Assembly (NCBI GenBank): GCA_949358305.1
Contig: OX442315.1
Coordinates: 28,172,427-28,236,426 of the forward strand
Reading direction: 5' to 3'
Length of the DNA: 64,000 bases
Source: Strigamia acuminata
Taxonomy: Eukaryota > Arthropoda > Chilopoda > Geophilomorpha > Linotaeniidae
The notes under the pieces were generated by a model. It worked only from the letters and a program-made list of their open reading frames with translations. It made no database searches and was not told the DNA's origin. Below are positions 1,744 through 40,909 of this stretch, piece by piece (positions within the stretch are counted from its first letter, which is position 1; each line of letters starts with the position of its first letter). Both the position numbers and the translations under genes were made by a program.

Positions 1744-2190
1744 TCATAAACAAACGATCTTGGTACGATGCATGAATCGGTCGCACCACCCATTCGAAGC
1801 TAGAAAAGATGAAATGCCTGGTGTGTCCTTACATTCACCTTTCGCCAGTTGTAGAGCTCGCAAACGAATAGAATTCCGTGTTATTATGATGCCATCTTTA
1901 CGTTGCGCCATAACCCAGTTGCTTAACACATTTTCTAGTTGAGGAAAGGAAGCCTCAGCTCCACGCTGGGCACGTTTCGTTTTGGGCAGTTGTTGCAGTG
2001 AATCTTTCTGTTTACGCCAACGCCGAACATTACTTTCTCCCACGCCAAATTCTCTCGCAGCAGCACAGTTATTATTATTTTCTGCAAATATCACGACACG
2101 TAATTTAAATCCCGCTTCAAAAGAAAAACGCTTTCGTTTCGCTTGGATACTTTTCACGATTGGTTGGATTCTTGGATTCTTGCAAGACAT
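1744..2190 (-). mobile_element. Pogo/Tigger-type DNA-binding fragment (Brinker-like HTH + CENP-B-like HTH), no transposase domain
   Basis: The 148-residue reading frame starts with a Brinker-type helix-turn-helix (about residues 20-60, with the typical 'GVGESNVRRWRKQK' recognition helix). A linker and a CENP-B/Tc5-type second HTH follow (about residues 80-140, 'NGWCDRFMHR' near the end). This pair is the N-terminal DNA-binding half of many pogo/Tigger and JRK-type transposases and of genes derived from them. The frame stops right after the second HTH and no DDE catalytic domain is visible downstream on the minus strand. It is therefore either a truncated transposase or a stand-alone DNA-binding derivative. 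Flanks have simple TTGGAT repeats upstream and no terminal inverted repeats I can pair. Confidence 0.65.
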
Positions 2191-2245
2191 TATTGGATTG
2201 TTGGATTGTCGTTGGATGGTTGGATTGTCGGTTCTTTGGATGGTT
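2160..2245. repeat. TTGGAT-rich simple repeat
   Basis: Imperfect tandem runs of 'ttggat' and 'tggattg' lie directly 5' of, and overlapping, the start of the pogo-like frame. The first codons of that frame (IQPIVKSIQ) fall inside it, so the true start codon of the ORF is uncertain. Confidence 0.7.
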
Positions 2246-2715
2246 TTGGCCTGCCGGTTGGTCTTTTATATACAAAAATGTAACGAACGTAGTACTTACG
2301 TTACATTGTTACATTTTTTTATATACGCGCATATAAGCCGACCCCCCCAATTAGAGGTCCGAATTTTGAAATAAATTTTTCGGTTTATACCCAGGGATAT
2401 ACGGTAAGCAGGACGTCCCCAAAAACATACACTGAGGTCCTTCAAACAACAAAAAATGTCAGTAGTTAATACAATTAAGAAGAAAAATCAGTAAACTATA
2501 AAAGTATCAATATGTATGTGTGTAGTTTATCACTTAGCATGGTCATAGCCCAATAGGCAGGGTGCCTGTCTGGGGATTCGACCAAGCAAGCCGCAATCTT
2601 AATTTTTCGACAATTGGCATTAATAACGCCAAGTGGGGGTGCAACTGAACAAGAGGAGGTGCAAGGCACCCAAGCAGCAGGGCCGAGGGGGCGGCAGAGC
2701 CTCAAAATAACTTCC

Positions 2716-5123: not shown

Positions 5124-6158
5124 TTAACAATGATCGATACGAGTTCCATCCCATTTCTTCCATTCCATTCCTTCGGGAGTTTGACTTAGGACTTTTTTCT
5201 CTCGAACTTGTTCCCAGTTGCTGTTTAAAACAGTTCCTCCGGACTCTATAAACGATTTGTTCATTGCTCTCCTCGCTTCTTCCGAGCTTTGAGCAAAAAG
5301 GTGATCAAAAAATGCCTGACCTCCTGTATCACCTTCATCAAGTTGTTCATTTTGCGTATAATCACTCACTACTTTGTCCCAATTCTTTTTCGTTGAGAAT
5401 AAATCTGGTGTATTAATATTTTCTTGAAGTTCATGCAATGTTTTCCACTGTCCACTATCTAATTTTCGCAGTTGAATTTCAATCTTCGAAGGAACAATTT
5501 TCCACGTGCTGTGTTCAGGATTAATCGCGTGCGCCAAATTAATGTCCACTTCGTAAGCAACACGATTTTCGCTTCCTTGCACTTTGCACTGCAAAGTTTT
5601 ACTGGTATATTGTATAGACACGTCCTCTGGCTTTGCATTCTTAACCAGGATGGTTACAATCACATTAATTTCCGTTTGATACCATTCATGTCTCACCTGG
5701 ATAAGACTAGCAGTCGGACAAACAATTTTAGGCTCTCCGTCATCCTTTACTTGCGGTTTGACCGTGAACTGTTTAAACCAGACATCAAAATCGTCTTTAA
5801 ACGCATCGTTCCAATCCGTAAGTGCTGAGATTGCTTTACCAAAATCGTCTTTAAATGCGTCTTTCCAATCCGTATGTGCTGCTATTGCTTTATCAATATC
5901 ATCTAATTGCACGCATTCATTTCCTTTCATCAAGCGTGATTTAGTTTCCGTTATCCACAATTCTGAGGCTTTATCTGCGTCATGTTTGGCTTTTTCGTAA
6001 TTTCTGAGTAACAAGTTTGAATTTGCCCGACTTCTATAATAAATCACTTGCGTGGAGTCAATCTCAATGGCTTTTGTGTAAAAATCATTTGCCATATTAT
6101 AATCTTCTCGGGCAAAGGCTTCGTTGCCTTTAGTGTAATACGCATCTGACGATGTCAT
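5124..6158 (-). CDS. SUGT1: SGT1 / SUGT1-like co-chaperone (TPR-CS-SGS), intronless
   Basis: 344-residue protein with SGT1 architecture. An N-terminal TPR region is at about residues 1-120 ('GNEAFAREDYNMANDFYTKAI'). A CS (p23-like) domain starts at about residue 155 with 'IQVRHEWYQTEINVIVTILV'. The C-terminal SGS domain ends in 'EGMEWKKWDG'. SGT1 couples HSP90 to SCF ubiquitin ligase and kinetochore clients. The start is the ATG at 6158; the open frame extends 25 codons further 5' but without another ATG. The TPR block is abnormal: an 18-codon unit is tandemly duplicated where the third TPR is expected (see 5786-5893). There are no introns and it has its own TATA box, so it is probably a retrocopy or a lineage-specific intronless paralog. 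A partial decayed copy follows upstream at about 6600-7075. Confidence 0.88.
   Translation of the reverse strand: MTSSDAYYTKGNEAFAREDYNMANDFYTKAIEIDSTQVIYYRSRANSNLLLRNYEKAKHDADKASELWITETKSRLMKGNECVQLDDIDKAIAAHTDWKDAFKDDFGKAISALTDWNDAFKDDFDVWFKQFTVKPQVKDDGEPKIVCPTASLIQVRHEWYQTEINVIVTILVKNAKPEDVSIQYTSKTLQCKVQGSENRVAYEVDINLAHAINPEHSTWKIVPSKIEIQLRKLDSGQWKTLHELQENINTPDLFSTKKNWDKVVSDYTQNEQLDEGDTGGQAFFDHLFAQSSEEARRAMNKSFIESGGTVLNSNWEQVREKKVLSQTPEGMEWKKWDGTRIDHC
5786..5893 (-). repeat. 54-bp in-frame tandem duplication inside SGT1-like TPR region
   Basis: Two 54-bp units (5786-5839 and 5840-5893) encode near-identical 18-residue segments of the form 'DKAIAAHTDWKDAFKDDF' and 'GKAISALTDWNDAFKDDF'. They replace the normal third TPR spacing. 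Confidence 0.85.
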
Positions 6159-6210
6159 TTTGGATGTGAGGTGGAAAATGATTAACTCGTTGTATTTGGA
6201 TGAGTCGGGA

Positions 6211-6217
6211 TTATATA
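6211..6217 (-). promoter_or_regulatory. TATA box of the SGT1-like gene
   Basis: On the minus strand TATATAA lies about 55 bp before the ATG at 6158. A start site about 30 bp downstream would give a very short leader. Confidence 0.5.
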
Positions 6218-6599
6218 GTCTCGTGGGGGCCACTTGTGAAAAAGGTTTACCTAATTGGTGGAGAATTGGAACGTCTCAATTCCTCTCCTAAAGGTTTCTG
6301 TGATCGTTGCATGAGTCATGATAAATTGTTTAAAATGCATTAATAGATTACTGCAACAGGTTTTGCATAAATAAAAATGATAACTTCAAATAAAACAATG
6401 CGATAAAGGTTTTACTATATGATTATAAATTCCGATATTAATTTTTATCAACTATCATCATTGGCTTTTGAAACTACAACAGGTTATTTAAATTTCTATA
6501 ATTTTTTTTTGCAGAAATCAGCAGAAGTATAAAAAACAAACTAAATATTTTCAGAACCGAAAACAAATCAAATTCCCAATTAAAATTTTACAAGAACCA

Positions 6600-13417: not shown

Positions 13418-14066
13418 TTAAAAGTGATCGACTAGAAGAATAACATAATCTCCATCAACACGCCACTGTCTGCTCTCTTTATCCAGCGATAAGTTTTGCC
13501 ATTTGCTACGATTACCTGCCAAATGAGAATCAAATGTCAAGTATTTACATATAATTACATTAAAATCAATTTACCTGTGGGCGTTTCACTAATTTTAAGC
13601 GCAAACGACCAATCCTCCTGATTTTTAGTGGCACAATGCGGTAATCGTAACTCCACAGGTTTACTGAAGTTCACGCCATGCGGGCCACACATTACAAGAG
13701 GACTTAGCAATTTCTCTCCTAAAAAAAGAATAAATAAATGTTAAATTGTAATTATGTTAATATTAAAATCGTAATCACCTTTGTCTTTATTCAGAGGTGG
13801 CAACAATTTGTTGTCCTGACACACTTTTAAAAATATTTCCTGTTCAGAATTGGGTGGAAGAGCGCCCGGTGGAATAACGAGACAAACCCCCGTCTTGGGA
13901 CACACTATTTTACCCCCTTCAGCACCAAATTTGCCTCGTCCTGATCCTAAAATTGCATTATTTACTTCTTGGACATTCCCATTGGTATCTTGGTTATCTT
14001 CAGTGGAAGTTGACGAAGAGGAGCCGGAACTGGAGCTGGATTCAACATCAACAATCCCAACAGACC
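13418..14066 (-). CDS. ZO-1 terminal unit A: ZU5 exons (distal copy)
   Basis: Terminal exon set A starts at the acceptor before '[14 protein letters not shown]' (about 14066). It encodes a Ser-rich linker and a ZU5 domain ('[20 protein letters not shown]'), and ends '..YVILLVDHF' with a stop at 13418-13420. The linker, the ZU5 start '[11 protein letters not shown]' and the 'VCQDNK' block each match unit B one for one. It joins the same upstream donor ('DTLK', phase 2), so it can only be used instead of unit B. The C-terminal 'L(V/I)DHF' end is conserved in ZO-1 proteins of other animals. Confidence 0.85.
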
Positions 14067-17000
14067 TTCATGTATAATGTTGAAATTAAGAAATTAAAAA
14101 ATATAAATAATTTTTGCTTCGCCATATAAAATCATTAGTAAGTGCGACAATGTGTGAAGGTGTAAACATGCATGTGCTGTGCTATTTGGAAATCATGCTC
14201 AACAAACAGTGCATTGGGTGAAATTAGTTTATTGGGCAATACAACTGTACAGTTTACAGAATAACCAATAACAAATGCGCCCCACAAACCCTTCCCTCGG
14301 CTTTAACGGGCAATATTGTAAAATATCAAGAGAAAAATTACTCTACTTACTCATAATTTAAATACCAGAAATACAATAGATAATAACATAGTTTTCTACA
14401 GTATTTACAATATGTATTTAGTAATATAATCTTTGGCACATTTAGAAATAATTGTAACCCTTCCAAAATCTGCTATAATCTCATTAATAACATTTAAAAA
14501 TGATCAACTAGAAGAGTAACATAGTCTCCATCTTGGCTCCCTTTATCCAGAGATAAGTTTTGCCATTTACTATGGTCACCTAGCAAAAAAATAAAAAAAT
14601 AAAATAAAATAATAATTGTCTTAAATATTACAATAAATTTACCTATAGGGTTCTCACTAGCAATTGCCCAATCGCCCTGACTTTCAGCAGAATGGGGTAT
14701 GCGCAACTCAACAGATTTATTAAAAGTCAGGCCTTGAGGTCCACAAATCACGAGCGGACTTAACAATTTCTCACCTGCAGAATAAAAAAATCCAAAAAAA
14801 TTAAAAATTTAACTTGCATACATTCAAATTTATACATCACCTCTATCTTCATCCACCGGAAGCAAAATCTTATTATCCCGACACACTTTGAAAAAAATCT
14901 CCTGTTCAGTATTAGAAGACAAAGCGCCTGGTGGAATGACGAGACAAACTCCCGTCTTGGAACATTCAATTTTCCCCCCTTCAACACCAATTTTGCCACG
15001 AGCTGATCCTAAAACCAACTGATTAGCTTCCTGAACACTTCCTTTACCGTCCTGGCTATCTTCACTAGAAGTTGAAGAGTCGGAAGAGGAGGAGCCGGAA
15101 CTGGACTCCACATCACCAATCCCAACAGACCTTCATTTACAAGGCCCAAATTAGGATCGATATAAACATCATCTCGTTCACCGTAATAAAATTAGTAAGT
15201 GCAACAACATATGAAGGTGCCAAACATGCTTGTGCTGTTTGGAAATCATGCTCGACAAACAAGTGAACAAAGTGCGTTGGGTGAAATTAGTTTATTGGGT
15301 AATACAGATATTTTAACTGTACAGTTTATAGAATAACAAGCAAATTCGTTTTACAAACCCTTCCCTCTTCAGTTCATGTGCAATATTGTCTTGCTTAATT
15401 ACAGGTGCAAAATGTCAAGTGACTTTGAGATGAACGGGACAAAGCAACAAAAAGAATCACACATCAACAGTTTAGACTCCACTTACTTCAGAGTATCCAC
15501 GTTGACAGTGAGCGGCGAGAAGCCGTGCAGCGAGTTTGGTTTTTTATACAGTTCAAACGCGCTGCCACGGTTTTCCCTGTTAGACAAGTCCAAACCACTC
15601 GCGTCTCGGTGGTGATGCGCCACTTCTCGCGGTGGCGGTACATTGTAATAGTAGCCACCGCCACCGCCTCTTCGGCTCGGACTCGCCGTTTTGTGGGTGG
15701 TGTCGTAATTCCGATCTAAACTGCTTCCTTGGCCGGAATCGAATCCGGCACTGTCCGAATCACATCGTGTCTTCATCCCTCCGTTAACGAGTCGTTCGGC
15801 TATCGTATTGTGATCATTCAGTCCGTAACTTTTCCCGGCGTAGTAATTCGTCGCGGGTCTCATTGCGTAATCGTTCTCGTTATAATTATTCAAACGACCG
15901 CTGTCGGGTTTGGCGATGTCGTACATTAATTTATTCCTCGCCACCTCGTCCTCTCGATTCCAGTAGTTTTCGGCTGGTAATCCCGAGTTGGGCGAGCGGT
16001 AGTTTTTTGGCTTCGGTGGAGGTACGGGTTTGTATTCGTTTCTACTACTAATTACCGTATATGCAAGAACGAAAAGTAAATAAACTAGCTCTCAAAATAG
16101 CAAAACTCACCTATATTTAGGTGCATTCAACTCTAGCATTTTGTTCCTAATCGGTTGTGAAGTCGATCGCGTGTATCTGTACGGATCGTGCAGCATTCTC
16201 AGTTGCTGTTCTCTCGCTTTCGCATCGTCTGGGAGTCCAACTGGCAGTTTTCCGTAAGAATCACTCCCGTACGATAACGTTTCGCTACTGTTTTGATAAC
16301 TGTACGGCTTTTCAGGACTTTTTTGGGTAGCATTTATGTAATTTCCAGCTCCAGGGTTCGGTTCAATATTATCTAAAATTTAAAAATGGTTAATTATTTT
16401 ATTTTTATTATTGAAATTTAAATTTATACCATTGAATCCAAACAACCGTTCATGAGCTGACCGTAAATGGAATGGTTTACTCCCTCGGTCAATTTTTGGC
16501 GGCACTTTTGGAGGTGAACGAGACTTTGTGCTGTATGGATCTAATGCATGCTCACCGGATAAAATCAGTTAATCGTAACTTTTAAATCGATTTATAAAAA
16601 TTACCCATTGGATCTCCATTAGTTCTCTCCGAGTATGTATCACTTACAGGTCTCGAACTATAAGCATTATATTTGTGTCTTGGTTCAACTGCGTGTTGAG
16701 ATATTGAGTTCCGATTTTCATTCGACGAATAATATTTACTATAAAACTGTTCTTCAGTCGCAGCTAAACAATAAAAATGTTCATTTACATTTATTCCACA
16801 GGTAATTCATCTAGTTTAATTACCATCAACTCGTTTTGGATCTACCGCGGAAGCTTGCGAAGGATAGGGACAATTATCAAACTCCTTTCCAAGAAAAAAA
16901 ATGTTAGTTATTCAAAAATTATCTTAATCCGAGTTATACTTGCATTGTACGGTGGTGGACCGTGATAAGAAGGAAGTCCAATGTCTTCTTGAGTGGCGAT

Positions 17001-20000
17001 GCTTGGATCGGAAGACGCCTTAACCAGCCGTCTGTCTCCGTAAGAAGGAGTAATCGCTTCGTTGGTATTGCGATGATTTATTTCTGTGGCTAAATCCAAA
17101 TCACTTTCAGGAGACGAGGCATAACTCAATCGTGATGTCATTGGAAACAAAAAATCATCCGTGATAGGTTCTTCAGGCTGAAAGCAATATTCCATCATTC
17201 AAATTCCCAGTTTAATATTTAAACGACAAGTCTTAAATTACTTTTGTTTCCGAAATCCAAATCGGCTGCTGCTGTTGCATTTCGATAACTTCTTTTATCT
17301 TCTTGTACCAAGTGTCAGCACTTGTTAAAGTGACAGTTGCTGCAATAATAAATAAAAATTGTGACTAAAATATAAAAATTAGAAAAATATATTACCTGTA
17401 AAAATGTGTGACCAAGTCTTTTCCAGTTTTCCCATGTGATCGAACAACTTCTTAGAGCTTTTTCCAGTGGATTTCGAGAGGCGACTTCTCAAATCTTTAA
17501 TCACGTGTTTATTATCCGCTCTCATGAAGATGACAATAGGATAGAACTGAGCATAATTCAGCCTATCAACGGCATTTGGTGTAATGTCGACAACTGCATG
17601 TTTCCCCTGTCAACAATTTCAATAAATCATCAATAACATTAAAAATCGTAAATAGTGATTACTTACGCGTTCACTAATTTCTTTTATGGCACTGAGACGC
17701 ACAATCGCAGCAGATTTACTCTTTGGTGAATCGTCCAAGTGATTATCAAGTTCTAGAATTTAAAATTAAACATAAAAATACGATTCATTGTATGTATATA
17801 TATATAATAAAACACTTACGTGGCGACACAAATTTAGAAGGAGAATCCTTAAGCAGTTTATCCCGCGCTGCATCGGAAAGTGGCCCCAACAAAATTACGG
17901 GACGAGTAAAACCAGCTGAAATAATTTGATTTTTAATTACTAAAATTAAATCAAGTAAAACCAAATATTCTTAACTTACGATGTCTCAATGTAATTCTCT
18001 CGTAGGATGGAAACTTTGAAGCAGAATCCACTACAAATTAAAAAATAAATATAAAATAAAAAATAAAACGATCATTTCACATGCAAAATGAACAACTTAC
18101 TCAGTAGTTTTGTTCGCCTTGCACTCCGCCTTTTAAAAAAGCTTCCCCGACTTTCAGAAAATGATTCCTTTTTGGCGGAATTTGCTCGTTCCACAGCCAA
18201 TTCCTCTGCTCTGTAAAGACTCCTCATTGTCACGCATCGTCCCGTTATAACACTTTAATTTATCTTACCGGCTTTTATTAGGAATGATGCCTTTCTGCGT
18301 TTGTTGATTATTACGACCAATACGATACACTTGCCACGACCCTACAACTCCATTATACAGCGTATCCACAACATGAAACACATCCCCAATACGGAAGCTC
18401 AACTCAGACTTATTGACATTATCATAATTGAAATGAGTTCTAAAAAAAAATTAAAATAAGTACTAAAAATAACAACCCAATGAATAAAAATGCTTACCTG
18501 ACATAGAAAGAGTCTCCAGCTTGGCTCGCAACAATAGAATCGTATTCCTCTCTTCGATATTGAACGATAAGATCGATTCTGTCTTGCAAATTGAGTAAAT
18601 AAAGCACCGCTTCTTCCCGAGTCACATCTTTCATGTCAAAGTTATTAACCTACAAATTAAACGTGTAAACACACATGGAACTTGTAACTGATCAAAATTT
18701 GTATAATATACACATTTTTCTTCAGTTATTTATCTTTAAACAAGCATCAACTCAAGCATACCTTCAAGATTTTATCGCCTGGCTGAAGACCTTGTAACGA
18801 AGCAGGACTTCCTGGTTGCACAGCAGTTACGAAGATTCCCGTCTGATTGCCACCAGTCAATCTAATCCCCACACTCCCCTCTTTAAGAAAGGAAATAAAA
18901 CGTGGATCTGGCCTAAAAATAAAAACAAATAATTAATACATATCATTATTTTTAAATTAAATCTATATCCCACGCTTACAATGATAATTTTCCTCTTCTC
19001 GATAGGGGGTCATCATCGTACAATTCTGTGAAAAAAAAAAAAGATTAAAAAAATTAAATCAAGATTCAAGAATAATGTATTCAATTTTTCTCCAGATAAC
19101 AAAGCACCTGAATTTAAATGACCTTGTGATAATGGCGTGGAAGGTTGATTTAAATTTCCATCATAATGTGGCGGCGGTGGTCGAGGTGGGGGATCATCCT
19201 CTTCGGGGATTACGCGAGGACGGTTATGATTATGACCCTGGAGCAAAGGCGTAGCCGGTTGATCCAACTGACTAAGCGAAATATCCATCAAAGGTCCCCT
19301 GCTACGTCCACTCATTCTTTGTAAATTAATCCGCAATGCATTAACATTATAAAGTCGTTTGTTTTCAAATATAAGTTACCTCGTCAAATTATTCTTATCC
19401 TCGGGAGGTGGTGGTGGTGAACGGTACTTATCTCCTCTTATTGGCGGTTGTACGTATAAATTTTGATTAGAATAATTCCTCATTTCATTAACATCGCTAA
19501 AGCTATGCATGTTATTGACATCATCTGCAAGAAGCTCCATTTGATTCGCGGGCGCATTCAATTGACTATTAAATCGAATCTGCTTACTTTTTGTGGGTGC
19601 CATCGTGTTGTCGTAAACATTTTGAGTATTTTCATTAACGTTTTTTGTGGTTTCTCGTCGAACCACCAACTGCAATTTCTCCTTGCAATTTTCTATCAGT
19701 TTCTTGGCCTCCTTTAATGTCAATGAATCAGTTGTAGCGTTGTTGATCTGCGGCGACAGTATAATTTTGTAGCAATAAAAAAGGAAAAAAAAGTTAATTA
19801 ATTAATTTTCTACCTTTGTAATAATGTCTCCTTCAGCCACACCAGAAGCGTCTTTACCGATGATATTTTTATTCGTAATCTCTTTAATAAATAATTTACA
19901 ACCAAGAACAATTCCAAAATCTACAACGTAAGAAAAAAATTAAACAGATTAAAAGATTAAATACAATTAATTAATTATGGTAATTAAACAAAAACGCACC

Positions 20001-23000
20001 ATCCTTCTTTTTATTCTTTGTAAGAGTAATTCTAAGAGTATGATAATCTTGTTGAGGTCCCGGCAACACAACTCTACGTTTAATCAACTGCAATAACAGA
20101 ACTTAGAACGACTATTTACATCAAAAATAAGTTCGCGACTTTTTGAGAATTTTTCATTGAACCAAAACATCGAATCAAACGTGAATTACCAATCTTTTTA
20201 AATTCACAAATAAATTAGGTGCATTCAATCTTCAAAAGACAAATTGACTTATTCATCTGAAATGACTTCTACAAACACGGTATAACGTTTTTTACATCAG
20301 ACCTCTGAGAAGTCATCTTGAAAGGATTCAAATAAGAGGCTTAGGATTAAATAAAATTGAAATCATTTCTGCTGTTTCCGCCATGTTTCAAAGCAATAAT
20401 TATAGATCATGTACCTATATTCTTAATTCTCACAATTCTCATAATAACCATAGTTGCTTAGGTTTTGGTTCCTAGGCAACTCCCCGCTCTAAAGAATAAA
20501 ACCAAAGACCTCAAAATCCCAGTGATAACAGGTCTATTATTTGATCATTGGGACTTGTTCCAATTAGTCTTAACAACATATCAACTTCTATGACTTATAG
20601 AAGTGACTTATCTCTTCTGCTATTGGCTATTGTTACCACACGTTGTGGGTAGCCATCTTTTTAGTTCATTTTAGTGTGTTCAATCAAGAAAATAATTCGT
20701 CTTTTAAAGTTTGAATGAACTTTTTAGCTTCCTGGTAAAATTAGTTGGCAAAAACTCGCAAACTCTCGAAAAACAATTTCAACTCGATTTGACTAACCAA
20801 ATGAATGGGCGAAGCACTATCTCTCAAAACCTGCACCGCTTTGGCATATTCAACATTTTCCAACGAAGCCCCATTCACGCTAATTACTCTGTCATTAATT
20901 CTACAAAGAAGGCCGATTAATCAAAATTATATTAGTTTCAACACCACACTCACAATAGTCGTCCTTCGGCTGGCCCGGCTTTAAGAACATCGGAAATGGC
21001 AATGGCTGGGTCTCCATTACTGAAATGTGGATTGTCTCTGCCACCACTAACGGCAATACCAAACCCATATCCAGGTACACGATTTATTGGGACTGTGTGG
21101 TATTCCCAGACGGCACGCTCACCATCCTACAATTTAAAAAAATATATATTACCAAATTTTATTTTAAAACGAAGTAAATAAAAAAAATAAAAAAAAATAA
21201 AAAAAATTTCATCACAAACTACTGTTACTATCGTCAGCAATATCTTTCGCCCTCTCTTTAGGGTCCATCATCTGTTGACATGCATATGACACGTCTTTGG
21301 AACCACATTTCCTTGGACCAGCAATTTTTTTACCCTTAAATCGGATAACTCGGAGAAAAAATTGCAAATAAGAAAAAAGTTCTGCTGACTTTAGTTGCTG
21401 TGCAAGCGAGTCTCTTGAAATCATAAACTAAACTCAAAAGACATCTGTTTTTGGCAGCGAGAAAATCATCAATGAGTGGAAGTAATCGACGGTTTTTTTC
21501 ACCAAAAAACTTCACAATTTAGTCAACCGACAATAACCATAAAGCAAAAGAAGAAAAAACGAAGAAAAAACGAAAAAAAAAAAAAAAAACAAGTTTAACA
21601 TTCCCATCTTTGCTTTGCATGTTTATTCTCTCACTCTCAAGCAGATGAAATAGGAGAAGACATTAAGTCTGCTCATAAATCAGATTCAATTCCAACGTAG
21701 ACCTGCTCGTATATCACGTGTGGACAACTGCTTTCCCCTCGTCTTCCATTACTATCAAACAACCTGCAGAACTTCATTCCGGCTAAACCAAAATTCAAAT
21801 TTTTTTACATTAATTTTAAATGAAAAGGTCTTCCATTAAAATGTCCACACTGCACCACCCGAACGTGCGGTTTATTCCCTGCGCCATTCAATATTTCTCG
21901 TCCTCGCAGTCCCCCCGATCCTTCGCCTTCGCCGCAATATCCTTCTCCTTTTTTCTTTTTTTTATTATTTCCGCTTGCTTCCTTATTAGTCCATAAAATA
22001 AGTGGTTACCGAAGCAAATATGGCTCAATGTCAAAATGAAACACGACACGAACTTGACTTTTCATCTGCCACAACTTCGAACAAGAAATATACCGAAGTC
22101 AATCGCCGTCCCTTAAATTGGCTCACTTTGCCGTATTAGAACGAGCAAAGAATAAAGGCAAAAAATGAAGACGAAAAAAATAAGTACAATCCTCATAGGT
22201 CGTCACCGAGAAACTTGGCACGAGACACCACAAATGATAATAAAAGAAAAACGAGTGGAAAAAAGTTGGGAAATGAAACGAAATAAATAAATAAATAAAT
22301 AAAAGTTCGTAGATTTATTAGTGTTATATCCAGCACGATTGGGAAGAAAAAAAAAAAAAGTGGGTGGCGGGAGGTCGTCTGACATCATATTAATTTGCTT
22401 CATTTCTCCAGGGAGCAACGAACAAGGAATACATGAGTGGATATAAAAAGAGAGGAAGGTAGAGAGAACCAAGCTCACTAAGTTACCAACATGCTTTTGC
22501 CATTAGCTGCCAATGTCCTTCTCAGCAGCTTCCCGCCAGACCTACTAATCCTCGTATTATGGATCTATATTTGCTCCAAAAGAAGCGAGCAATATGTAAT
22601 CTTAAACCAACGTCACATAAATTCTACTCTTTTGTAGTCCCAGCGCTCACCAATTTGCAAAAGTTGATTTCCAAAGACACCAATTTGATTCACTTAATTT
22701 CCCACTTCTTTAACTTAGTCAAACCCGACGTGGCGTCGATTTTTGATTAAAATTGTTGCAAAAAATACTTTCTTTCGTCTCCTTTTTACATAAAACCCGC
22801 GTTGAATCTCTTTTCCTCCTTTTATATCTGTCCCTCAAGACAGAAATTCACTTTGCGCATGCGTGTATCTCGGTCATCATAAGTGAATTCAAATACGCGT
22901 TCAATGAAGAGATACTTTATCTTTAATGTACTTCTATTTCCATAGATTGAATGCACTTACTCGTTAATCAAACATTCCACGCCCTATGTGTAAAGCTTAA

Positions 23001-38000: not shown

Positions 38001-38337
38001 CCCATATGTAGAACAAGTAATCAATTTCTACTTGCGTTTCATTTCGAAACAATGATTTATGTCAACACATTGAAATGCGCTCCACTGGAAACCAATGCGG
38101 TTACACTAAAACACTTTCCACTCGAGCCTCGACACTTAATTAATATTCTAATCAAACAGCAACAAATTCGACAAATAGCCGCACAGAGACATCACATTCA
38201 CAAACCTTGCTTCTAACCCTTTGAACCCGAACTCGAACATGACCTCCATCTTTCTTGTGGCTTCTCGATTTGTTACCGGATTTCGTATGTCGTCTTTTCT
38301 TTTTCGGCGCGGGAGGAGCTCCTTTAAAACGCCACAT
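13418..38337 (-). CDS. TJP1: ZO-1 / polychaetoid (MAGUK: PDZ1-PDZ2-PDZ3-SH3-GUK-ZU5)
   Basis: Multi-exon gene on the minus strand. PDZ1 lies in 20954-21126 and 20798-20900 ('[19 protein letters not shown]'). PDZ2 spans about 20000-20087, 19810-19920 and 19376-19748. PDZ3 is at about 18650-18980 ('[17 protein letters not shown]'). SH3 is at about 18270-18640. GUK is at about 17241-18213 ('[20 protein letters not shown]'), without an obvious intact ATP site, as usual for MAGUK pseudokinases. Proline- and serine-rich tail exons occupy about 15489-17180 (ending 'NVDTLK'), and then come two alternative ZU5 terminal units. The candidate first coding exon is 38206-38337. ZO-1 links cell-junction membrane proteins to actin. 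PDZ1 '[19 protein letters not shown]' is diagnostic. The position of the first exon is an inference; the rest is secure. Two upstream alternatives are discussed in the findings. Confidence 0.92.
14494..15133 (-). CDS. ZO-1 terminal unit B: ZU5 exons (proximal copy)
   Basis: The second terminal set begins with the acceptor before '[14 protein letters not shown]' (about 15133). It encodes the same Ser-rich linker and ZU5 ('[20 protein letters not shown]', '[17 protein letters not shown]'), then '[11 protein letters not shown]' with a stop at 14494-14496. Intron positions match unit A. Both units are intact and open, which argues for selection on each. Confidence 0.85.
20101..20797 (-). other. 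ZO-1 intron within PDZ1-PDZ2, no extra gene seen
   Basis: About 700 bp between the exon ending 20798 and the exon starting at 20087. No domain or RNA gene is recognisable. Confidence 0.5.
21127..38205 (-). other. Candidate 17-kb first intron of ZO-1; no confident gene inside
   Basis: The sequence between the PDZ1 exon and the 38206-38337 exon is AT-rich with many homopolymer A/T runs and simple repeats (e.g. (aaat)n at about 36012-36040, gaga-rich at about 35216-35255, an atcc repeat at about 31185-31210). GC-richer islands at about 26100-26330, 27400-27800, 30780-31400 and 36360-36860 carry short open frames without recognisable domains. They could be alternative 5' exons, enhancers or promoters. 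A frame at 21212-21424 (minus, 70 codons, rich in K/D) is also unplaced. I could not identify any conserved gene. Confidence 0.5.
38206..38337 (-). CDS. Candidate first coding exon of ZO-1
   Basis: It is a 132-nt frame of exactly 44 codons from an ATG (38335-38337) to a good donor (AAG|GTTTGT). It is strongly basic (Lys/Arg/His-rich, e.g. [18 protein letters not shown]) and ends in phase 0. The PDZ1 exon at 21126 begins in phase 0 with [10 protein letters not shown]. Joining the two keeps the frame and gives a basic N-terminal leader before PDZ1. No other start is visible for the PDZ1 exon in the intron, but a transcript would be needed to prove the splice. Confidence 0.5.
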
Positions 38338-39398: not shown

Positions 39399-39402
39399 CA
39401 CT

Positions 39403-40473
39403 TCAATGACCCTTCAAGCTGTCAAGCAGCTTTAAAATAAATACAAAAAAAAAATATTATAATCCCAAAAAAAATAAAAATTAATGAAAAAAAAATTTTT
39501 AAAAATTTAAAAGTACAAATACCTCATCTTCATCAGCTTCGACGATCTCAGGTTTACTCTGACCTCTCACAGGACTCCTTACAGGTGAATTTCTGCTGTT
39601 TGTAAAATCTTGCAACGACAAACTCGTCCTACTTAACCGACTCATACTTTGCCTAAATTAGTCGACATGAAATTGCGTTTAATTCATATGCTTTAACATC
39701 AACATAAAATTTAATTTTCTATTTTCTATTAAGAATTCACCTGTTGTTTGTTGCCAAATTATCAAGATTTGCAAGCGCTCGGTCCCTTTCATCCTTCATT
39801 TCAGTATAACGATACCAAGCATCGTCTCTCTCTTTAACTGCCTGTGCTTTTTCTCTTAAAACCGCATCTCGTTCTTTTAGTGCGAGTTCAAACCCCATTT
39901 TTAATGCCTGGGACGGCGCTTTGTCTTCGTGACGGCCACCTGTGTCATAGAAAAAAGAAAATATTAACAACAAAAGACTCACCAAACAGAAAAATAGAAA
40001 TTCTATCCAAACAAAATAAATAAATATTCGTGTTTTCTGCTTAAAATAATTCAAATTTGTAAAAAAAAAAATAAAAAAATTACGTAATTACTTGTCCGGC
40101 AGTGAGTCATGTTGTTTACTAATTATTTAAACTCACATGGTTTGCACATGTCAGTTTCGATGACATCTAATTTTTTTTTAATTGAATAAATACCTGCATT
40201 GGCTACACCATAGCGATTTGTGAAATGCGGAGACAATCGTTCTAATTTTTTGTAAACTTCTTGAAATGCCCATAAATCTTTTTTCGATAAGAAGTCTAAA
40301 AAAGTTTCGGTTCTTAACGCAACGTTGTTTTCACGTAAAATAGCCGCTTCTTCTTCATTACTGAACACGCCTTTCTGTACTAATTCGGGGAGAAAGTGGA
40401 GAATATTAACATCACGTGTTAACGATTCTTTATATCGCTCTAGCAACAACGAAGCAGGAGAAGTGGGCGCCAT
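39403..40473 (-). CDS. CARD plus coiled-coil protein (MAGUK-type N-terminal module, DLG5/CARMA-like)
   Basis: Exons: start ATG at 40471-40473 down to 40137, 39741-39939, 39523-39652, and a short end exon from 39429 whose frame gives LLDSLKGH and a stop at 39403-39405. The first exon begins MAPTSPASLLLERYKESLTRD and carries a CARD-like six-helix segment through about residue 85. Exon 2 is coiled coil ('KERDAVLREKAQAVKERDDA', 'KDERDRALANLDNL'). The CARD resembles the N-terminus of DLG5, where it also precedes a long coiled coil and then PDZ-SH3-GUK domains. Read to the stop, the protein is about 230 residues. The exon ending at 39523 is phase 0. It could also splice to the ZO-1 PDZ1 exon. An in-frame extension 5' of the ATG also exists. 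The function is inferred only. Confidence 0.68.
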
Positions 40474-40909
40474 TTTGGACGCTTCTCGGCCTAATAAAGC
40501 CGAAGTGTCGAAGGTCACTATGCCAATGTCCTACCAAAGATTATGAAAAGTTGCTTAACGGTGCATTATGAGAAATATTTTTTTTTCTGTTCATCGAACT
40601 GCAACGCAAAACGAGAGAAACCAAATGTTTTCTGGAAAAGATGTTTATTATTACAACACTTAAATAATTTTTATTTTTTTTTATGTTTAAAATATAAAAA
40701 TTTTGCGTTTCAATTTTCTTCTGTTCTTTTAGAAAGTCGGAACTCTTGAATTTTATTTATTTATTTTTATTTTATTTAGGATTCTGGCTTCGCCGAGCTT
40801 TGCTGTGCCATCTAAGTTTCTGTAGAACTCGAATTAATGCATCATGGTGGCGCCACAGTGAACTTCCGGTTCTGCGCAATTTAAATTGTTGTAAATTTTT
40901 GGTAAAGTA
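40474..40909. promoter_or_regulatory. Divergent promoter region, CARD gene (-) / TIMM17 (+)
   Basis: About 435 bp between start codons. It includes 'aacttccggttctgcg' near 40861 (ETS/initiator-like), typical of TATA-less housekeeping promoters. A good acceptor-like site at about 40531-40532 means the CARD gene may have an extra 5' exon reaching into this region. Confidence 0.45.

What the first reader, a model, noticed from the sequence alone, without database searches (positions are those of the whole stretch)
39403..40518. CARD plus coiled-coil module sits on the ZO-1 strand with phase-compatible exon end
A CARD and a coiled coil on the minus strand are immediately upstream of the ZO-1 gene. 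Its third exon ends in phase 0 with an acidic 'EADEDE', and ZO-1's PDZ1 exon begins in phase 0 with '[10 protein letters not shown]'. CARMA/CARD11 and DLG5 have CARD-coiled coil-PDZ-SH3-GUK. A CARD-coiled coil-PDZx3-SH3-GUK-ZU5 protein would be a composite of both groups and may reflect an ancestral MAGUK architecture. The alternative is a small separate gene ending at a stop four bases before another donor, i.e. a poison or alternative last exon at 39399-39429.
Basis: inference. Interest (0 to 1): 0.78.

Follow-up and report, generated by a model that had tools for sequence, protein, structure and literature searches.

The report
CARD domain heading myriapod ZO-1 scaffold
The piece just upstream of a centipede- or millipede-like animal's ZO-1 gene is most likely the gene's own front end: it adds an interaction domain best known from immunity and cell death (CARD) to a cell-junction scaffold, an arrangement that many related animals also show.

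Summary
Three minus-strand exons (40473-40194, 39939-39741, 39652-39523) encode a true CARD (Pfam PF00619, 38 bits, cut-off 23.9), a coiled coil and an acidic linker. Spliced in phase 0 to the PDZ1 exon at 21126, they open one 1561-codon frame: CARD-CC-PDZx3-SH3-GUK-ZU5.

They are most likely the 5' end of ZO-1, not a separate gene. All hits to the CARD-CC part, 7 and 9 (including those 7), are long annotated ZO-1 proteins. 48 of 125 listed ZO-type proteins begin with this CARD (13 of the 48 trained the profile): amphioxus, brachiopod, molluscs, chelicerates, crustaceans and insects, including fly polychaetoid isoforms that carry no Pfam CARD tag. A tree places the window beside a millipede. 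In print, zebrafish ZO1b-Alpha carries a CARD (PMC10703405).

Less recognised: the CARD-CC looks ancestral to bilaterian ZO, and its closest relative found is the CARD of a DLG5-like gene in the same genome (66.7 bits, against at most 40.6 for solved CARDs). Function is inferred: alternative promoters choose between a self-assembling CARD-CC scaffold and shorter isoforms.

The parts
40194..40473 (-). ZO-1 exon 1: start codon and complete CARD, ends in phase 1
39741..39939 (-). exon 2: coiled coil (QALKMGFELALKERDAVLRE...), phase 1 in, phase 2 out
   Evidence: 65% identity to Lingula ZO-1 residues 88-156, E 3.7e-19, the only place in the genome that this search gave for the coiled-coil part; 63% over 68 aa to Branchiostoma and Lingula
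39523..39652 (-). exon 3: Ser-rich linker and acidic tail EADEDE, phase 2 in, phase 0 out
   Evidence: many arthropod homologues read E-x-L-x-E/D-P-V-E-E just before GGER in the same position; acceptor weak, 49th percentile
39399..39429 (-). possible 31-nt cassette between exons 3 and 4; in the CARD frame it reads LLDSLKGH then stop
   Evidence: acceptor 98.1 and donor 99.9 percentile of window sites; no transcript or conservation evidence
38206..38337 (-). candidate alternative first exon, basic N-terminus [44 protein letters not shown], phase 0 donor (a second donor lies at 38218)
   Evidence: the only start codon in intron 3 that met the criteria, with two possible donors; none in 41000-64000 of the minus strand or on the plus strand (criteria set after the lead was seen); mites, horseshoe crab and flies have basic alternative N-termini ending K, R or Q before GER
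20798..21126 (-). ZO-1 exons 4-5 (21126-20954, 20900-20798): PDZ1, first exon phase 0
   Evidence: Pfam PDZ, three stretches in the model; model
19380..20087 (-). ZO-1 exons 6-8: end of PDZ1, PDZ2 and following linker
18498..18912 (-). ZO-1 exons 11-12: PDZ3
   Evidence: Pfam PDZ best stretch residues 578-648
18269..18439 (-). ZO-1 exon 13: SH3
   Evidence: PF07653 41.4 bits, residues 667-728
17242..17915 (-). ZO-1 exons 16-19: guanylate-kinase-like domain
   Evidence: PF00625 56.6 bits, residues 831-931; genome hit C3:28189823-28190053
14494..15130 (-). ZO-1 exons 26-28, ZU5 copy A with stop
   Evidence: PF00791 hits at window 14845-14997 and 14662-14778; model
13418..14065 (-). second, tandem-duplicated set of ZU5 terminal exons (copy B), also open when joined to exon 25 (1568 aa)
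   Evidence: PF00791 hits at window 13783-13935 and 13588-13719

Best explanation
The three exons are the 5' end of this animal's ZO-1 (TJP1/polychaetoid) gene. Transcripts that start upstream of 40473 give a long isoform, CARD-coiled coil-PDZx3-SH3-GUK-ZU5; transcripts that start inside the 18.4-kb intron 3, perhaps with the basic exon at 38337-38206, give a short isoform that enters at the PDZ1 exon. Shown here: the CARD, the open frame, the homology of the whole CARD-CC unit to N-termini of ZO-1 in other bilaterians, and that both kinds of N-terminus are annotated in other arthropods. Inferred: the splice itself, the alternative promoter, and the work of the CARD-CC. For that work I commit to this: the coiled coil brings copies together and the CARD stacks with other CARDs (its own kind, or the sister CARD of DLG5), so that the long isoform builds larger junction scaffolds in epithelia than the short one. 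I give this mechanism about 40%; the confidence below is for the gene assignment. It does not need BCL10, of which the CARD family search of the genome gave no sign.
Confidence: 0.92

Rival explanations
1. A small separate CARD-coiled coil gene (CARD9-like) lies head to tail with ZO-1 and ends at the 31-nt exon 39429-39399.
For: The 31-nt segment has strong splice sites and an in-frame stop; the gap to PDZ1 is 18.4 kb; AATAAA motifs occur in the intron, as AT-rich DNA would give anyway.
Against: The CARD-CC unit matches ZO-1 N-termini end to end; the coiled coil is 63% identical to that of amphioxus and brachiopod ZO-1, while solved CARD9 and CARD11 CARDs reach only 32 and 28 bits with the ZO-CARD profile; the acidic exon 3 tail corresponds to the residues that precede PDZ1 in other arthropods.
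Confidence: 0.04
2. The locus makes both: the 31-nt cassette is a regulated poison exon that turns the long isoform off, or yields a free CARD-CC protein.
For: Both sites score among the best in the window; the clam Mya has two listed isoforms that differ by a small insert at this junction (P0007 and P0009).
Against: No transcript; no related DNA was available to ask whether the cassette is conserved; strong-looking sites occur by chance in 64 kb.
Confidence: 0.25
3. CARMA-type origin: the CARD-CC was added to ZO-1 independently, by fusion with a CARD9-like gene, as proposed for vertebrate CARMA (PMC5978004).
For: Fusion is the published proposal for CARMA; the ZO-CARD profile does match CARD9 and CARD11 among solved CARDs, after APAF1.
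Against: The CARD of the DLG5-like gene scores 66.7 bits, well above CARD9 and CARD11; both CARDs appear to occupy one first coding exon that ends in phase 1 at nearly the same place (read by eye; gene models, not cDNA); the feature spans protostomes and chordates.
Confidence: 0.12

Closest known systems
Zebrafish tjp1b / ZO1b-Alpha (PMC10703405; abstract passage, part 1 of section 6 and found passages seen)
   Same: CARD at the N-terminus of a ZO-1 with PDZ, SH3, GUK and ZU5, made by an alternative first exon
   Different: Vertebrate; three starts (Alpha, Beta, Gamma); a text search of the paper for 'conserved' found none and for 'evolution' one occurrence, and the passages seen say nothing of invertebrates
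Annotated CARD-bearing ZO-1 of other invertebrates (Tachypleus, Centruroides, Parasteatoda, Lingula, Pecten, Branchiostoma)
   Same: Same order of domains; coiled-coil profile found in Tachypleus, three spiders, molluscs, brachiopod and amphioxus
   Different: Database predictions; the insect records with the CARD did not match the coiled-coil profile
DLG5-like gene of the same genome (C10, locus L020)
   Same: N-terminal CARD, coiled coil, PDZ, SH3, GUK; nearest CARD by profile
   Different: Long coiled coil; no ZU5 hit lies in the stretch fetched; separate locus. The name DLG5 rests on this architecture; its best-matching solved PDZ is DLG4 (66 bits), then DLG5 (59.3)
CARMA1-3 (CARD11, CARD14, CARD10)
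   Same: CARD-coiled coil-PDZ-SH3-GUK order
   Different: One PDZ, no ZU5 and a BCL10 partner (recalled, and in part PMC1978500 and PMC5978004 passages); CARD11 CARD only 28 bits to the ZO profile

Membership tests
ZO (TJP1/polychaetoid) MAGUK | Three PDZ, SH3, GUK in order | tested here: met
   PF00595 three stretches, PF07653, PF00625
ZO (TJP1/polychaetoid) MAGUK | C-terminal ZU5 | tested here: met
   PF00791 in both terminal exon sets
ZO (TJP1/polychaetoid) MAGUK | Groups with ZO proteins by phylogeny | tested here: met
CARD domain | Match to the curated profile above cut-off | tested here: met
   39.7 and 38 bits, cut-off 23.9
CARD domain | Six-helix bundle close to solved CARDs | tested here: met
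CARD-bearing ZO isoform (ZO1b-Alpha type) | CARD-CC in the same transcript as the ZO core | not testable with these tools
   No RNA data; supported by homology and phase only
CARMA | One PDZ and no ZU5 | tested here: not met
   Three PDZ and ZU5
CARMA | Binds BCL10 | not testable with these tools
   The CARD family search of the genome gave only three places: ZO-1, the DLG5-like gene and a CARD-NB-ARC (APAF1-like) gene; split or divergent CARDs can be missed
DLG5 | Long coiled coil and DLG5 locus | tested here: not met
   The DLG5-like gene is a different gene on C10

The most novel reading that the evidence does not exclude
ZO and DLG5, and possibly CARMA, descend from one CARD-coiled coil-PDZ-SH3-GUK gene. 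The ZO CARD-CC is an ancient, BCL10-independent junction-assembly module of bilaterians, still present in cryptic, loop-inserted form in Drosophila polychaetoid isoforms. CARMA immune scaffolds would then be a late reuse of a junctional module rather than a fresh fusion.
Probability: 0.4. Interest if true: 0.72.

Novelty: new member of a known kind. Interest (0 to 1): 0.5.

Why it matters
In the passages and sections I saw, two surveys of MAGUK evolution name the CARD as a mark of CARMA and DLG5 and mention none in ZO (PMC1978500, PMC2859873; their figures and tables of architecture were not seen). The data here say that a CARD-CC is an old part of ZO, shared by arthropods, lophotrochozoans and chordates, and related most closely to the CARD of a DLG5-like gene. 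That bears on the sponge CARD-PDZ-SH3-GUK protein which PMC2859873 proposes as the ancestral form of DLG5, CARMA and ZO, and offers an alternative to a late fusion origin of CARMA. It also points to an isoform-specific experiment in Drosophila, where the CARD has no Pfam tag in the records seen.

Tried and rejected
Separate-gene reading: weighed and set aside because the CARD-CC unit is collinear with ZO-1 N-termini in other animals. Literature: 'polychaetoid' with 'caspase recruitment' gave 0 papers; CARD, ZO-1, polychaetoid and MAGUK together gave 0; 'ZU5 domain', CARD and MAGUK gave 0. The other searches gave listings, from which four papers were opened. The library holds open-licence papers only, so absence there is weak. 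Single-sequence search of solved structures found nothing; the profile did. Conserved alternative first exon by tblastn of other N-termini: mostly low-complexity noise (plus-strand matches down to E 1.6e-4), with one weak minus-strand lead at 38310-38248 (E 0.011) that became the candidate; the criteria there were chosen after seeing it. A coiled-coil match between ZO and the DLG5-like gene (26.6 bits over 42 aa) is not used as evidence, since coiled coils match by composition. A first gene model lost frame at exon 22-23 and was corrected by using the GTAAGT donor at 16648; exon 20 has a GC donor and exon 23 a poor acceptor, so that stretch is uncertain. The DLG5 name was checked late: Pfam gives CARD, PDZ pieces, SH3 and GUK; the best solved match of one PDZ is DLG4, DLG5 second, so 'DLG5-like' is the safer name.

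Full report

Does it belong to ZO-1? Joining exon 3 (phase 0) to the PDZ1 exon at 21126 and on through 28 exons gives 1561 codons with no stop. Pfam finds CARD, three PDZ, SH3 and GUK in the first 1026 residues of the model and ZU5 in the last exons. Phase alone is a one-in-three coincidence. The weight lies on homologues: a search with residues 1-205 returned 7 proteins at E up to 0.001 and, with a full-length model and E up to 1, 9 proteins including those 7. All are annotated ZO-1/TJP1 proteins with a Pfam CARD, from amphioxus, a brachiopod and molluscs. These searches only admit proteins of 0.55 to 1.75 times the query's length, so a short stand-alone CARD-CC could not have shown up.

How widespread. 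A search with residues 1-650 scored the 7989 candidates sharing most words and gave 577 proteins at E up to 1e-10, of which 120 were listed. Of the 125 proteins listed in the three searches together, 48 begin with the CARD by the ZO-CARD profile, 13 of them being sequences from which that profile was built; 77 do not; none lies between E 1e-4 and 1; 0 of 2500 shuffled N-termini pass. By the listing 18 of the 48 carry the Pfam CARD tag. The 30 without it include all 20 fly records among the 48 (for example Drosophila bipectinata P0078, Hermetia P0044, Musca autumnalis P0066), where a long insert splits the CARD between the places of its third and fourth helices. Several records come from one species, so counts of records are not counts of species. 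The coiled-coil profile is found in 14 of 125: molluscs, brachiopod, amphioxus, Tachypleus and three spiders, 8 of the 14 being its training set. The window keeps the coiled coil; the insect records did not match. Some species have records both with and without the CARD (Musca autumnalis P0066 and P0088, D. bipectinata P0078 and P0103), as expected from alternative first exons. The records are mostly automatic predictions.

Whose genome. In a tree of 33 ZO-type cores the window pairs with the millipede Chamberlinius (97/95), next to Pancrustacea at a weaker 82/91. By identity over alignment columns the cricket Gryllus is highest (65% over 778 columns), by path length and alignment score Chamberlinius is nearest. 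So the animal is most likely a myriapod; the listed Chamberlinius protein is a short form without CARD.

Relation to DLG5 and CARMA. The genome holds a DLG5-like gene on C10 (L020): CARD (38.8 bits), long coiled coil, PDZ pieces, SH3 and GUK. One of its PDZ domains is closest to DLG4 (66 bits) and next to DLG5 (59.3) among solved chains, so the name rests on the architecture. Its CARD lies in what looks like the first coding exon, which ends in phase 1 like the ZO CARD exon and, counted by eye from the conserved proline, within about three codons of the same place. The ZO-CARD profile scores this CARD 66.7 bits, the same genome's CARD-NB-ARC (APAF1-like) CARD 46.8, and among solved CARDs APAF1 40.6, CARD9 32, CARD11 28, BCL10 16. 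The DLG5-like CARD as a single query reaches 32.3 bits at best against solved chains, RAIDD first; single-sequence and profile scores are not on one scale. One DLG5-like sequence is thin sampling, and profile scores are not a tree. PMC2859873 (passages and two sections) proposes a sponge CARD-PDZ-SH3-GUK protein as the ancestral form of DLG5, CARMA and ZO, and warns that its support values are in part low. PMC5978004 (passages) proposes that CARMA arose when a CARD9-like gene fused with a ZO-1/Dlg5-like MAGUK. [quoted passage not shown] The present data favour the common-ancestor view for ZO and DLG5 and leave CARMA open.

What is known. Zebrafish tjp1b has three transcription starts; ZO1b-Alpha (2005 aa) carries a CARD, is expressed mainly outside neurons and was not found at synapses; all three forms keep the PDZ, SH3, GUK and ZU5 part (PMC10703405: abstract passage, part 1 of section 6, and found passages). 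So the architecture is in print in one vertebrate. Three searches found no paper that describes it in polychaetoid or under ZU5 and MAGUK terms, within an open-licence library.

How it may work. Inference: one gene, at least two starts. The long form brings CARD and coiled coil to the junction scaffold. Intron 3 holds a candidate second start, a basic exon at 38337-38206 that ends in phase 0 and resembles the basic alternative N-termini of mites, horseshoe crab and flies; no other start met the same criteria in the control stretches, though the criteria were set after the lead was seen. Coiled-coil pairing plus CARD stacking would make the long form a nucleator of larger scaffolds. The CARD family search of the genome gave ZO-1, the DLG5-like and the APAF1-like gene only, so BCL10 is an unlikely partner, with the caveat that split or divergent CARDs can be missed.

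Against. No transcript; a weak exon 3 acceptor; a strong 31-nt cassette with a stop just downstream, which could act as a poison exon. No DNA of a sister species was available to test conservation of the cassette or of the candidate first exon.

Verdict. It is a new member of an arrangement already present in databases and, for one vertebrate, in print. The interest lies in its age, its tie to DLG5 and its cryptic presence in flies.

Noticed in passing
window 15130-14494 and 14065-13418 (minus): The ZU5-encoding terminal exons of ZO-1 are duplicated in tandem; both sets are open and join exon 25 in frame, so the gene may have two alternative C-termini. Exon identity is 218 of 290, 99 of 144 and 74 of 98 aligned positions.
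   Followed up: partly
window 38337-38206 (minus): Candidate alternative first exon with a Lys/Arg-rich N-terminus inside intron 3.
   Followed up: partly
window 39429-39399 (minus): 31-nt cassette with very good splice sites and an in-frame stop.
   Followed up: partly
L020 (C10:302500-312000, minus): DLG5-like gene with a CARD in an arthropod; PMC1978500 (passage) reports a CARD in mouse or human DLG5 and not in all other species it looked at.
   Followed up: partly
C10:288811-289029 (minus), L024: A ZU5 domain lies about 14.3 kb beyond the guanylate-kinase match of the DLG5-like gene on the same strand; whether it belongs to that gene or to a neighbour was not examined.
   Followed up: no
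P0078, P0044, P0051, P0066, P0081 and other fly ZO records: Fly polychaetoid/ZO isoforms begin with a CARD that is split by a long insert and carries no Pfam CARD tag in the listing.
   Followed up: partly
window 5124-6275 (minus): Open reading frame with TPR, CS and SGS domains, SGT1-like.
   Followed up: no
window 1744-2265 (minus): Tc5/CENP-B type DNA-binding domains, likely part of a transposase.
   Followed up: no
P0007 against P0009: Two Mya arenaria ZO-1 isoforms differ by a small insert exactly at the junction between the CARD-CC part and PDZ1.
   Followed up: no
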